Source: Hysterangium stoloniferum (Eukaryota > Basidiomycota > Agaricomycetes > Hysterangiales > Hysterangiaceae). Taken from it: a stretch of DNA of 64,000 nt. Position 1 is the stretch's first letter. Each line of letters starts with the position of its first letter. The notes beneath the pieces are model-generated. The model saw nothing but the letters and a program-made list of their open reading frames with translations, was not told where the DNA came from and made no database searches. Of the stretch, positions 1 through 6,692 are shown one piece after another. The translations under genes and the position numbers were made by a program. Location: positions 806,001-870,000 of the forward strand of contig WHVD01000013.1 in the NCBI GenBank assembly GCA_015178975.1, in the 5' to 3' direction.

Positions 1-1575
1 ATCATGGATAATCCTTCAAACTGTCAATTAACTTTTTTCGATTTCACAGCCAAAATGCTATACGGCCGTTGCTCCCGACATTCTACAATATTGCGTCGCT
101 GGTTAGTGGTTGCTCATTATTCCTCGTTTCCACCGTGCACTAACTAACCGAACTCCAGATAGCAGACGCGATAGCATCAAAGATCGACAATTCTCAGAAT
201 GATATAATAGAGGAGGATATGCAAAGGTGGACAAACCGCTTTAGGTGCAAAAGAATCCTTCCGTGTTACGTGAAGCTTACATTTTTTTCAGTCTCGACAC
301 CATCGGACTCGCTGGATTCTCGTACGAATTTAACTCCGTATCTAACACCGAAAACAAGCTTTCTAGCTCGCTAGAGAGCCTAACAAATTCGGCCGATAAT
401 TTTGCATCTTTCGTCATAAAAGCACTGTTCTTTACCTTCCCCGGCATCTTGAAACGTGCGTGCACCCTTAACACTTTGGCTACTTCAAATTTTAAACGCC
501 TAACCTTCTATATTTGTCCTTAGTTCCCTCTCAGAAGGCAAGGTACATCAACTCTACTCGTAAAGAACTTGGCAAGGCTGCTACCGACATGTGGAATCAA
601 GCGAAGGCGGCTGGAAACATTGAAGACCGGACTCTCATGTCACTGATGAGTATGTGACTAACATCTACTTATCGATCATAATGTGCACTAATTACGGAAA
701 TTTCCTACAGTGAAGGCTGATGGTGCAGACGCAATGACTCAAGAGGAGATAGCAACTCAACTGCGCACGCTTGTCCAAGCTGGTTATGAAACAGTCGGCT
801 GTGAACTTGCTGTTAGTATCTCCCTCATAACTGATATGTTATGTCGACCACTTACTTTGACTTCAGTGGATATTTTATGAAATTGCCAAGGATCATAACG
901 TTCAGAAACGCCTCCGGGATGAGGTTACTGCGACCCCTTCAGAGCCGACATACGATGATCTTCTTGAGCGCACGCCATTCCTAGACGCTGTCATCAAGGA
1001 ATGTCTTCGTCTTCATGCACCCGTTATAGAATTGACCCACGTTGTGAGTATTATCAATTTCTTTTCAATTTTGGCATATTTCCAACCTTTTCTTCAGGCT
1101 GCGCATGACTCCGTTGTTCCTCTAGCCAAGCCCTTAAGAGATGCTGGAGAAGTTACTATGGTGATCCCCCGTGGAACCATTATCCAAATACCGGTTGACG
1201 TCATGCAAAGGGATCCGGAAGTCTGGGGGTCAGACTCCAATCAATTCAGGCCTGAACGTTGGCTATTGGCTGACAATGAAAAGCATCACAGAGAGGTTTG
1301 GGCATTTAGGTTAGTATGTTTGTACACATCATATTGGTCTTTGCTGAAACATCTTCTCTACACGCAGCACTGGACCTCGCAAATGCCCAGGTCGTCAATT
1401 CGCTATGATAGAAATGAAGGCTCTCATTGCCATTCTATTACGCCAGTTTGAATTCCAACTTAACGCCGAAAAGCCAATTGAACCGTTCTGGAGCTTCGTC
1501 GTCCGTACACGTGTGCAAGGGAACAAAAAGAGCGAGCTTCCTCTCCTGATCTCCAAGCTTAAATATGATGAATGA
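1..1575 (+). CDS. cytochrome P450, C-terminal part (5' end outside window)
   Basis: Heme-thiolate monooxygenase; substrate unknown. Only the C-terminal two thirds lie in the window. Splicing several short introns gives a continuous frame with the I-helix (LVQAGYETVG, about 780-800), the K-helix ExxR motif (ECLR at 999-1010), the FRPERW segment (about 1246-1263) and the heme-binding loop FSTGPRKCPG, which an intron splits (about 1310-1395) and which carries the proximal Cys ligand. The reading frame ends at TGA 1573-1575. The usual Thr/Ser after ET in the I-helix is Val here. Such P450s are normally anchored in the ER by an N-terminal helix, which is not visible. Its neighbour on the right is convergent and unrelated, so nothing suggests a cluster. 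The P450 family number cannot be assigned by eye. Confidence 0.93.
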
Positions 1576-1789: not shown

Positions 1790-4592
1790 CTACCGCATCT
1801 TCACCATCAGAAGATAGCCTTGTTTCAGGAAATCAGGCGACCAACAAGTACGACCAGGAACAAACACTTACGAAGCCGAATCTGTGAAGGAGAGTAAACG
1901 ATATACTGCCATATATATTAATTCGACATAAAACATATAACTTCTAAATGACACCTACCTCATTGTATTGGAGATATGCACCAGCAGGATTGACTGGGTG
2001 TCCTTCGCCGTTGGGCATGTATACCCCTGCTAATTCAGGGTGTTCAAGTGCGTCCCCTGCATCCTTCCACTTGACAGGTTGTGTTCTACCGATGCCTTTT
2101 GTCGCCCTTCAAATAAGAAGGCAGAACAGTTGGAATCGGGGAGAATGGAAAAAAATATACATGTGTAGCTTACATCGCTTTGGCAGACTTGCATCCCTGG
2201 TCGGCGTTATAATCAGCATTTTCTAATTCGTGGAATGGTCTGACGGCCGCCTCGCAAAGAAGAAGAAGTCCGATGTCATTGCTCAAGCTAATAATGGCCC
2301 TAGGTTATATCACAGAACAACAAGACGGGATGTGACCATACGATGCATAGCAGTAATTGGCGGATTTAGACATCATCTGCGAAATAATTTTAATTCCGGG
2401 AGTGACGGTGAAGGCAATAGGACATACATCTGCGAGATATATGCCCTTTCCAAACATATAACCGGACACTGGTGCCTCTGGAGGTGCAATCCGTAGACCT
2501 TGTTTCAGTATACCGGCGAAATTGGTTGTCCTAGAACCATGCCAGAGCAGCATTCTTTCACCGTCGCCAAGCTTGTCGTAACCGGCTTCCCTGAAAGCTT
2601 TGACCTCGGCATCTCTAAAAACAAGCAGAATGGGTCGAAGTCAGAAGAGCTGGAAGCTTCGAAAAGTTTTTCCGTAGCGCAGACATACCTCTCGATTCTG
2701 AATGCATTCAAAACCTCGGTGGAGAAATTATGGGTTTGACCGTGAGTATTCTTGACATACGACTGTAATGAGAAAAATTCGTTGCTGGTCCTTGATACAG
2801 GAGACATAAAAGAAAGTCCCAGTGATTGGAAGTTTGAATCAAGAGGGTTGATGGCAACACCTTCAACATTAATGGCAGCGGTCGATGAAATAATGTTCTG
2901 AGCGACTTCCTAGGATACTAGATAAATAAAATACAGTAAATACCACTGATAAAAAAGGACTGGCCATTTCTCCAAGGTTGTCGAGAGTACTAAGTTCCTG
3001 ATAAATGGTCATTACTCAAAATACTGATGTAATTACTATCAAGTTATTTACGGCTTTTAATAGCTCCATGCTGTTGATGATTGTAGGCCGATTGCGTCCA
3101 AAGTCATGCGGGATGACGCTAAACAGCAGTTAAATGCTCACGGTAAGCACAAGACGACAAATAATGCTCACGAGTAATATCGCCCGCTCAATTCGGCGAA
3201 AACCGCATCATTTCTGTCGTAAGGATTAGGATCTTCCAAGATTTCTGCGAGCTCCTACTCAACGACTCAGAATCAGCAAAAACATTACAGTTGCCAAATC
3301 CGATACAACGGACCTTCAAGATAGCGAAGCCCTTCAGGATTGTAGACTTGGCAAGTTTTCCTACAGAGTGAAAAGGTCACTTTTAGAAGAGATATAACGG
3401 CGTTTAATGGTCATGATCACCTAGGGGAAGTTTGTTCGCGTCGTAATTCATTGAAGAAAGATGCGCAGATAAAAGACTGCAAAAAGACAGTGAACAGTGG
3501 AGTCGAGCAATAACAATTTTGTTTACGCTGTGGAGAATATGACTTTGCAGAGTTCCTAATAGTAAGTTAGATTGGATCGGACATTATTTTTGGGAATGAT
3601 GAATAATATACCTGAACTTCAGGCTCCAATTTAGACAGCGGAATAGGACTTTCATTTCCCTCATTGGCACCAGAACCACCAGCCGCAATGTTATCGGATT
3701 CGTCCTCAAAGACACGCTCTGATAGATAGGAAGGCATGGATCAAAAAAGGCGTCGAAATTCTGAGCCATGTAAGGGGCTTACCCAAGAAAGTATACTTGC
3801 CTATGGCAGTAATAAATAATGCTATAATATCTTTCACGTTGCGTGGTTACATACCCTTCTTAGGAACCATACCATGTCGGTGTTCCCAAGCAGTGCCAGT
3901 TTTGGCCTTAAATTGTTTCTTGAATTGGATAATCGCCTCCTGAGGAGAGAACGGGCCCTGGACGAAGTTAGTAGGTAAAATAAAAATTCCCTCCCTTTAA
4001 AAAACACAATCTTGGATCACCTTGGTCTGCGTAGCTCCGTTCTCTCCAACTCTACCCCAGCGTGTAAACATGGTGCATTGACCATCACCTTTATGTAAAA
4101 GTTGTATCACATAGAATCTGAAAAGATAAGATAATGCATTCATAAGATAAACGATTTTCGTACTTGTTGCTGTTGGTACTGCCTGATATGTCTGTTTGAT
4201 TACTGGAACAGATAAATGTATCAGCATCATTCATTGGTGGATAATAAAGTGAACACACAGCATAGCATCCCAAATCTCATTATTATCGTAATACACTTCA
4301 TGGGTGTCTTGATAGTATTAAATGGGCAAGTGTTCATACTGCAGCGAGAGTAATTATAGCCAAACATACCAACACAGGTGGAGTGAGGATCAACTGGCGC
4401 TACTCCTCGTTTCAAAACTGTGACCATTTTCTTTTTATCATCATCGGTCTTTGCCTTCTTCGATACGGGTTTCGAATCACTTTCAGAATCAGAGACTTGG
4501 ACTCGTTTGGAACCAGATTTAGAACTTGGCTTCGCTTTTGACACGGGTTTCGCTTTGGCGGCGCTGGCGGGCTTCTTCGACCTCGGTGGCAT
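1790..4592 (-). CDS. poly(ADP-ribose) polymerase, PARP2-like (WGR + regulatory + catalytic domains)
   Basis: Transfers ADP-ribose from NAD+ onto proteins in chromatin, typically at DNA breaks. The start ATG at 4592 opens a Lys/Ser-rich basic N-terminus ([10 protein letters not shown]...). A WGR domain follows ([18 protein letters not shown], about 4020-4080; [15 protein letters not shown], about 3845-3890). Next is the helical regulatory domain (about 2505-3760), then the catalytic domain with [15 protein letters not shown] (about 2500-2550) and [12 protein letters not shown] (about 2420-2460). The H-Y-E triad appears complete: His in WHGS, Tyr in GKGIYLAD, Glu in LQYNEYIVYS (codon near 1959-1961). 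Polymerase rather than mono-transferase activity is therefore expected. I see no BRCT domain or zinc fingers, so the architecture is that of PARP2. The last exons were rebuilt from short pieces ending at TAG 1790-1792. It lies head-to-head with a RING/PBZ-like ligase. Confidence 0.93.
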
Positions 4593-4960
4593 CCTTGTAT
4601 CAAGATATAGGGTGTGGCGGACAGCAGGAAGTTGGTTGGTTTTGCGTCAAGTGAAATGGAAGCGATCAATATATATTATTATACCGGTCAACCCCCTGTC
4701 GAGCAAATGACCAGCGTCTAATAAATGACTGTGATCGGCTCTTTGAACAAAGTAATATAATTCTTTGAGCGTTGACGTTGAGCCCTAAGCAAGATAGGCA
4801 CCGTTATAACACTCGTATTTCGGAGAAGACTAACAAGTGAGCAAATACTTATACCATAGGCATAAACAAATTACCCCTAGAATTAGCAACTTATGTAATG
4901 ATCGCGTAAATTGCATGACTCCCTTATTTATGTAACGGTAATCCGCCACACCTGACCACA
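4593..4960. promoter_or_regulatory. divergent promoter between PARP and the CHFR-like ligase
   Basis: These 368 bp separate the two start codons and hold no gene. The region must carry the upstream control elements of both divergent genes. I found no clear TATA box or known palindromic operator. The shared upstream DNA suggests joint control, but that is inference. Confidence 0.6.
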
Positions 4961-6692
4961 ATGTCTAACCGTTCTACAGAAGATAGCTTAACTGGCGAAG
5001 GATGTTCCCCTGTTAAACGTGACCATTCAAGTGACGCTGACGAGCCCGAAGCCCAGAGTGAATCCCAAAACAGTACAGCTTCAATTGACCAAGAATTAAG
5101 TTGTGGTAAGTAGGCACCTCGAGTGCGTATTGAAGTTTGTTTTGTGCTGATATATGCTGTACTCGCAATATGGTAGGTATCTGCCTTGATATCCTAGTGT
5201 CCCCATATACCAGTTCGTTTTTGTGCCCATCGTCATGAAATATTAACTGGAGTTCTAAAACAGTCATCCCATGTCTACACTCATTTGACAAGAGTTGTTT
5301 AATGGAATGGTGGAAAAAGTGCAATATCCAATGCCGTTAATATTATCATGACTCATTATAATTGAGTGCAGAAATTCGAACTGTCCCACCTGCCAAAAGG
5401 AATCAACCTCCGCAAAGTCTGCATTCCAGCTAAAAGCCATTATTGATCGTGTTCATAAAAACAAACGGCAAAAGCTGCAATCTACAACTGGTGGTAACAA
5501 TAATAGCGAGATTTTTCCTTCGGGGGATGGGGGGGCAGATCTATTTGACGAGGAAATTATGGAAGACGACGTAGAACCTGAAGATGGTTTGATTTGGCCG
5601 TGTCTCTCATGCGATCCCAATAATGCCACTGGCTATGTTTGTCCTGTCCCTATACCGGCTCCAACACCAGCAGAAAGGCAGGAAGCGAACCATGCTGTAC
5701 CGCCTTCTCGTGAAACGCCCAAGACCCCTCTTGATTCTCCTGCTGCAAACGGGAAGTTAGTGAACATATTTTACTTGCATTTCTTTTGATAATAAACATC
5801 ATGTCTTACAGACCTGGAGTTGACTTCCATACCGTTTGCGTCGCATGCAGCAATTATATCCCCCTCAACTTTACGAGACCAATCAAATGTTGGCTCCGGT
5901 TTTAGTCGCTAGGCTTCTTCTCAGATTTTACTGAAAAATGTGCATAGGCTCGAATTGCTCTAACGCCCGTTGTAACAATTTCGATCCAGCTGGCTGTCCA
6001 AGCGGTATGCCCTTTTACCGTCGTTTGGGTAAGTTCCATATGGATCAAACTTCGCAAAAATCAATTTTAATTGCTCAACAATAGATGTCAAGTTACCGAT
6101 GCACAGCGTGGATGGTTTGTTGATTTACATGCCACCTAATGTTAACCTGAATAGACACGAACGAACTCGCTTTGTGAATTACATGACAGCCAAGAATCTC
6201 TCAGTGGACGATGTGCTCCACGCGTTGTTTGATGCTAAGCATGATCAAGTCGCGGAAGATTTAAATGATCAAATTGCTGATGAAGAATGGGGTCCAGGTG
6301 CCTACTTCTGCAATTACTGTGTTGGGAGTGTGGCCATGTCTATGTTTTTTACTTGGTGGATGCATGAACGACAAAAGAGTCTGGACAATGACGATGGTGA
6401 GTGTTGCATGTATATCAGAGGACTTACGACGTAATGCTTGCCATCTTGACAGGGATTATCCCATCTAAACAGGATTGTTGGTTAGCCATTGGATATGCTC
6501 TAATCGTGGCATCTACTATATTGACAAATGATGTCTCGCAGGTATGGAAGAGAGTGCCGAACACAGACGCACAATGACTCTCACGGAGACAGACTAAATG
6601 TGAGTTTTGACTTTCGGCCAAGGAAAGAGACAATGTTAACTTCATGATCTCTACAGCATATCTGCGAGAACACAAGGCCACCGAATCCCTAG
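4961..6692 (+). CDS. CHFR-like RING E3 ubiquitin ligase with C-terminal PBZ-like zinc finger
   Basis: Predicted ubiquitin ligase. After an acidic, Ser-rich N-terminus (ATG 4961), a C3HC4 RING finger is assembled from three small exons between about 5100 and 5385: CGICLDI, then PCLHSFDKSCLMEWWKK, then NCPTCQKE. A Cys-rich region of the CHFR type follows (WPCLSCDP; FHTVCVACSN; IKCSNCSNARC; GAYFCNYCVG), spaced by a helical stretch. The last two exons encode KQDCWYGRECRTQTHNDSH and then GDRLNHIC (6467-6665), fitting the PBZ pattern K-x2-C-x-Y-G-x2-C...H-x5-H. Translation ends at TAG 6690-6692. Animal CHFR starts with an FHA domain, which is absent here. It lies head-to-head with PARP, the enzyme that makes the ligand a PBZ finger would bind. 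RING and Cys-rich assignments are firm; the PBZ call rests on the pattern only. Confidence 0.85.

What the first reader, a model, noticed from the sequence alone, without database searches (positions are those of the whole stretch)
1790..6692. PARP and a RING ligase with a PBZ-like finger share a divergent promoter
Seen: a PARP2-like enzyme with an apparently complete H-Y-E triad lies head-to-head, 368 bp apart, with a RING protein whose last residues fit a poly(ADP-ribose)-binding PBZ finger. Known: animal CHFR binds poly(ADP-ribose) through its PBZ finger and ubiquitylates PARP1. Inference: this fungus may have a physically linked writer-reader/eraser pair in which ADP-ribosylation recruits the ligase, possibly to remove auto-modified PARP. 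The rest of the region is unrelated housekeeping genes, so this pairing stands out as a possible undescribed two-gene module.
Basis: partly seen in the sequence, partly recalled or inferred. Interest (0 to 1): 0.85.

Follow-up and report, generated by a model that had tools for sequence, protein, structure and literature searches.

The report
Fungal PARP beside CHFR-like ubiquitin ligase
In a truffle-like fungus, and apparently in relatives, the gene for an enzyme that makes the DNA-damage signal poly(ADP-ribose) lies near the gene for a ubiquitin ligase that looks built to read that signal, a kind of reader that a published survey did not find in fungi.

Summary

Linkage is probably not private to this strain: in Ramaria rubella both proteins come from contigs of identical length (444,749 b), and two unnamed stinkhorn-like proteins from contigs of 3,797 b. 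Co-loss is not supported: none of the genera of 106 named PARP rows from other Agaricomycetes appears in my ligase lists. Perina et al. 2014 found no PBZ in Fungi; 33 of 45 named fungal hits here carry the motif. Co-regulation, PAR binding and PARP ubiquitylation are inferred. Human CHFR-PARP1 and the human PARP9/DTX3L bidirectional pair are precedents.

The parts
1790..4592 (-). PARP2-type poly(ADP-ribose) polymerase gene, 20 exons, 19 introns of 46-74 nt, 572 aa
   Evidence: spliced model, whose last 517 residues equal the deposited protein P0025; Pfam WGR, PARP_reg, PARP on the first 582-aa version
2539..2541 (-). codon of catalytic His416 (LLWHGSR)
   Evidence: residue number, codon place worked out from the exons and read
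2437..2439 (-). codon of catalytic Tyr450 (GKGIYLAD)
   Evidence: residue number, codon place worked out from the exons
1959..1961 (-). codon of catalytic Glu552 (YNEYIVY), last codon of exon 18
   Evidence: residue number, codon place worked out from the exons
4593..4960 (.). 368-bp divergent intergenic region, candidate bidirectional promoter
   Evidence: distance between the two start codons; promoter activity not tested
4961..6692 (+). CHFR-like RING ubiquitin ligase gene without FHA domain, 10 exons, 9 introns of 51-71 nt, 403 aa
   Evidence: spliced model; RING and zf-CRD; relatives
5102..5393 (+). RING domain (residues 48-86), spread over exons 1-4, with Asp at zinc-ligand position 5
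   Evidence: coordinates worked out from the exons
5601..6359 (+). CHFR-type cysteine-rich domain (residues about 156-351)
   Evidence: Pfam PF17979 at 212-351; conserved Cys from 156 on; profile match to 2xp0/2xoc; fold match of the orthologue P0002
6476..6665 (+). PBZ-like finger CWYGRECRTQTHNDSHGDRLNHIC (residues 372-395), spread over exons 8-10
   Evidence: coordinates worked out from the exons

Best explanation
The locus is a linked writer-reader pair. The PARP2-type enzyme is switched on by DNA breaks through its WGR and regulatory domains and makes poly(ADP-ribose) on itself and on neighbours. The divergently transcribed CHFR-family ligase binds that polymer through its CRD-PBZ unit and ubiquitylates the modified proteins, auto-modified PARP probably among them, so the signal both recruits the ligase and limits the writer. 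Having no phospho-threonine-reading FHA domain (a separate FHA-RING gene lies elsewhere in the genome), the ligase should find its targets mainly through poly(ADP-ribose). The shared 368-bp upstream region would keep the two in step. Shown here: domains, catalytic triad, CHFR fold in an orthologue's predicted model, head-to-head linkage in this genome, and indirect evidence of linkage in two others. Inferred: PAR binding, E3 activity, PARP as substrate, co-regulation.
Against: No biochemical or expression data. The PBZ scores below its Pfam cut-off, has Leu where the published consensus has Phe/Tyr (consensus in PMC4030884, passages), and has one more residue between the second Cys and the first His than human CHFR (alignment). 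RING ligand 5 is Asp, not Cys. The fold match is loose as a whole (rmsd 5.7-7.2, TM-score 0.51 or less by target length). No baseline for gene-order conservation was measured. In human cells the interaction also stabilises CHFR, so the pair may not simply limit PARP.
Confidence: 0.48

Rival explanations
1. Neighbours only: both genes are real and active, but they lie together because gene order in Phallomycetidae has not been broken since the common ancestor, with no shared regulation or direct substrate relation.
For: Linkage in related lineages is what common descent alone can give; baseline gene-order conservation was not measured; PARP is listed for many other Agaricomycetes without a ligase hit.
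Against: Human CHFR binds PARylated PARP1, so the neighbour is just the partner expected. For the 3,797-b pair the two coding lengths take 3,066 b, so spacing would be tight there too.
Confidence: 0.3
2. The ligase reads poly(ADP-ribose) but its main substrates are other modified proteins (chromatin, repair or mitotic proteins), not PARP itself.
For: Human CHFR has a mitotic checkpoint role and co-facilitates histone ubiquitination (PMC4741567, introduction passage).
Against: None direct; linkage to PARP is slightly better explained if PARP is a substrate or co-regulated.
Confidence: 0.3
3. The ligase has lost function: Asp at RING ligand 5 and the off-consensus finger make it a remnant without E3 activity or PAR binding.
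For: Asp for Cys at ligand 5 in 12 of the 44 proteins in which the RING pattern could be read; PBZ model below cut-off.
Against: The Asp is fixed in all 9 readable rows of the 11-row clade that holds the window protein, and the finger's Cys/His set is kept in its intact models, which is conservation, not decay. Asp at ligand 5 or 6 defines the RING-D type of plants, and the majority of Arabidopsis RING proteins were reported active in vitro (PMC5240574, passages; not stated for RING-D alone).
Confidence: 0.1

Closest known systems
CHFR (checkpoint with FHA and RING), human; PDB 2xoc, 2xoy, 2xp0
   Same: RING (human RING recalled), then cysteine-rich multi-zinc domain, then C-terminal PBZ finger; same fold in an orthologue's model; very similar C-terminal motif
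   Different: no FHA domain; Asp instead of Cys at RING ligand 5; gene lies next to PARP
Human PARP2 / fungal PARP (DNA-repair PARPs)
   Same: WGR, regulatory and catalytic domains, H-Y-E triad; match at E 9e-91; ordinary among the listed Agaricomycete PARPs
   Different: nothing noted beyond usual divergence
PARP9 (BAL1) / DTX3L (BBAP) gene pair, human
   Same: a PARP-family gene and an E3 ubiquitin ligase gene sharing a bidirectional promoter (title of Juszczynski et al. 2006, seen as a reference entry only)
   Different: other PARP class and other ligase family (recalled); interferon-responsive; the resemblance would be convergent
Dma1/Chf1-type FHA-RING ligases of fungi
   Same: usually named as the fungal CHFR relatives (recalled); an FHA-RING gene is in this genome at C530:358411
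   Different: FHA plus RING, no zf-CRD match in the 386-aa frame scanned; not linked to the PARP

Membership tests
CHFR family | RING domain | tested here: met
   Pfam zf-C3HC4_2 40.2 bits, cut-off 27; note Asp at ligand 5
CHFR family | cysteine-rich multi-zinc domain (PF17979) | tested here: met
   39.1 bits, cut-off 26.3; fold match of the orthologue P0002 to 2xoy/2xoc
CHFR family | C-terminal PBZ finger | tested here: inconclusive
   Cys/His set and CHFR-type motif present, match to human CHFR E about 1e-4; Pfam PBZ model 15.5 bits, below cut-off 22.7
CHFR family | N-terminal FHA domain | tested here: not met
   no FHA match at E <= 1; the start codon is 47 residues before the RING and the PARP start codon lies 368 bp upstream; PF00498 is listed for none of P0001-P0011 but for 8 of 24 hits overall. 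So: CHFR-like, not a full CHFR
CHFR family | binds poly(ADP-ribose) and ubiquitylates PARP | not testable with these tools
   needs protein biochemistry
DNA-repair PARP (PARP2 type) | WGR, regulatory and catalytic domains in that order, without N-terminal zinc-finger or BRCT matches | tested here: met
   (first 582-aa model; the final model differs only at two internal junctions)
DNA-repair PARP (PARP2 type) | H-Y-E catalytic triad | tested here: met
   H416, Y450, E552, aligned to human PARP2
PARP9/DTX3L-like bidirectional pair | one promoter region drives both genes | not testable with these tools
   368-bp spacing only

The most novel reading that the evidence does not exclude
A dedicated two-gene PAR circuit of Phallomycetidae: a PARP and an FHA-less, Asp-type RING, PAR-reading ubiquitin ligase, kept side by side for co-expression since before the split of Hysterangiales, Gomphales and Phallales, in which poly(ADP-ribose) alone directs the ligase to the writer and ends the damage signal. 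It would be an evolutionary parallel to the human PARP9/DTX3L pair.
Probability: 0.28. Interest if true: 0.72.

Novelty: new variant of a known kind. Interest (0 to 1): 0.57.

Why it matters
A 2014 survey used PBZ fingers as a marker of PAR metabolism and reported none in Fungi (PMC4245714, passages). If the pair works as proposed, it makes the CHFR-PARP relation testable in a genome where one PARP locus was found, and separates the PAR-reading part of CHFR from its FHA part.

Tried and rejected
A second PBZ candidate in the own genome (C514:201800, 19.1 bits) lies in another reading frame than the 276-aa open frame over it, next to stop codons, and was rejected as chance. That search did not list the window's own finger, which is split by introns, so it cannot count fingers. 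The zf-CRD search listed only this locus, and below cut-off (20 bits). Canonical PARG (PF05028) and HPF1 (PF10228) gave no match, but their controls were silent, so absence is not shown. A second copy of the ligase and intergenic DNA was sought; only the locus itself and a 69-b stretch elsewhere matched. My first PARP model (582 aa) had two poor junctions (introns of 37 and 42 nt), replaced by introns of 55 and 54 nt, giving 572 aa. Searches used the 582-aa version and a 578-aa version. The profile search for more ligases scored only the 7,991 candidates sharing most words and did not list known members such as P0004, P0005 and P0006, so it is not evidence of absence; one search reported 601 candidates without such a limit. 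In one search only 7,987 candidates were scored and the best 120 of 4,953 are listed, so linkage could not be checked for Sphaerobolus, Gautieria, Clathrus, Tulasnella and the Ceratobasidiaceae, whose PARPs are not in that list. Papers by Oberoi et al. 2010 and Kashima et al. 2012 are not held and were seen only as reference entries. Literature searches for fungal CHFR/PBZ and fungal PARP pairs (open-licence library; papers listed of papers found: 2 of 2, 20 of 51, 15 of 34, 5 of 5, 1 of 1, 10 of 311, 10 of 5,078) listed no title or abstract start that describes this pair; most lists were cut, so this is not proof that it is unpublished.

Full report
What is there. The window is part of a 1,272,789-b contig (C35) of a 111-Mb assembly. 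Both encoded proteins match Hysterangium stoloniferum records whose longest contig has the same length: P0001 (100% identity over 92% of the query) and P0025 (99% over 90%). I take the organism to be that species.

The PARP gene. Exons joined by hand on the minus strand from 4592 to 1790 give 572 residues in 20 exons, with introns of 46-74 nt, all GT-AG. The last 517 residues equal the deposited protein P0025; my model starts 55 residues earlier. The 582-aa first version scores 74.1 bits for WGR, 128.3 for PARP_reg and 185.6 for PARP and aligns with human PARP2 at E 9e-91. H416, Y450 and E552 are in place. An exon-wise search listed one PARP locus in the genome. The gene is ordinary: 4,953 proteins at E <= 1e-40 among 7,987 scored candidates, of which 120 are listed.

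The ligase gene. On the plus strand 4961-6692 gives 403 residues in 10 exons. RING and zf-CRD pass their Pfam cut-offs; the PBZ model does not (15.5 against 22.7 bits). The finger is still convincing: a 38-residue stretch at the C-terminus matches human CHFR at E 8e-5 in the PDB set, and the motif recurs in 40 of the 55 proteins listed by the two ligase searches. Of these 55, 45 are named fungal proteins (33 with the motif), 9 are from unnamed sources (7 with it) and one is a fish Topors-like protein (without; counted by eye). Several relatives end just after it. The deposited model P0001 follows mine for 372 residues, then takes another splice and loses the finger. The models of Gautieria (P0003) and Clathrus (P0007) also depart at or before the finger.

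Linkage. The protein search reports, for each protein, the length of its longest contig. As a control, the two Hysterangium proteins both show 1,272,789, the true length of C35. Ramaria rubella: ligase P0005 and PARP P0026 both show 444,749. Unnamed 'lgn' source: ligase P0004 and PARP P0027 both show 3,797, each with one contig. P0004 pairs with Clathrus (100/100) and P0027 groups with Hysterangium and Ramaria (100/100), as expected if both come from one stinkhorn-like fungus. The two coding lengths sum to 3,066 of 3,797 b, so the genes would be close neighbours; there is little room for introns like those in Hysterangium, so I infer a contig built from RNA reads. Orientation there is unknown. 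Equal contig length is strong but indirect evidence; in Ramaria it means only the same contig. For a genome of about 120 Mb (my assumption) chance co-location on such a contig is about 0.4%. P0005 lacks its RING in the deposited model, which I cannot judge. For five further ligase sources (Sphaerobolus, Gautieria, Clathrus, Tulasnella, Ceratobasidiaceae) no PARP is in the list of 120, so linkage there was not tested.

Against the module idea. Of the 120 listed PARP rows, 12 are unnamed, 2 are Hysterangium and Ramaria, and 106 are named rows of other Agaricomycetes (counted by eye; some species have two rows; class recalled); none of their genera appears among the 24 ligase hits or the 37. So PARP seems widely kept without the ligase. 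needs shared 5-residue words, so a divergent ligase could be missed, and one search was limited.

Context in the genome. The zf-CRD search lists only this locus, below cut-off, one exon at a time. A separate FHA-RING gene lies at C530:358411 (FHA and RING over cut-off). Microbial-type PARG has two matches, C13 and C514, the first with GGGFLSGANAQEE; one macrodomain match lies on C496. The pair is thus writer and reader; probable erasers are elsewhere.

Novelty. Perina et al. [quoted passage not shown] The window's finger and that of P0002 score below the Pfam cut-off, which may explain the miss; two listed hits (P0162, P0167) do carry PF10283 in the precomputed column. In human cells CHFR binds PARylated PARP1 through the PBZ, CHFR knockdown raises PARP1, and PARP1 knockdown lowers CHFR (PMC4741567, abstract, passages, sections 6 and 7). 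A PARP gene and an E3 gene under one bidirectional promoter exist in humans (PARP9/DTX3L; title in reference lists only). I therefore rate this as a new variant of a known kind: a CHFR-family subtype with an unusual, probably conserved gene neighbour.

Noticed in passing
window 6453-6692: The deposited Hysterangium protein P0001 splices the last exons differently and so lacks the PBZ-like finger; the Gautieria (P0003) and Clathrus (P0007) models also depart there.
   Followed up: yes
window 4805-4869; C2:233553-233621 (L005): A 65-b stretch of the divergent intergenic region recurs once elsewhere in the genome at 78% identity (E 2.5e-7); meaning unknown.
   Followed up: partly
window 861-1451: Cytochrome P450 coding exons on the plus strand, convergent with the PARP gene (Pfam p450).
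   Followed up: partly
proteins P0009, P0010, P0016, P0153-P0161, P0166-P0168, P0170: Mostly Ceratobasidiaceae: a second, longer CHFR-like type with a PF11901 domain, in some cases neighbours by locus tag (FRC12_009720/009721, FRC08_001475/001476).
   Followed up: no
L009 (C530:358411): An FHA-RING gene, separate from the CHFR-like gene and unlinked to the PARP.
   Followed up: partly
L007 (C514:482437): A second microbial-type PARG match; my simple pattern found no GG-X-QEE signature there.
   Followed up: partly
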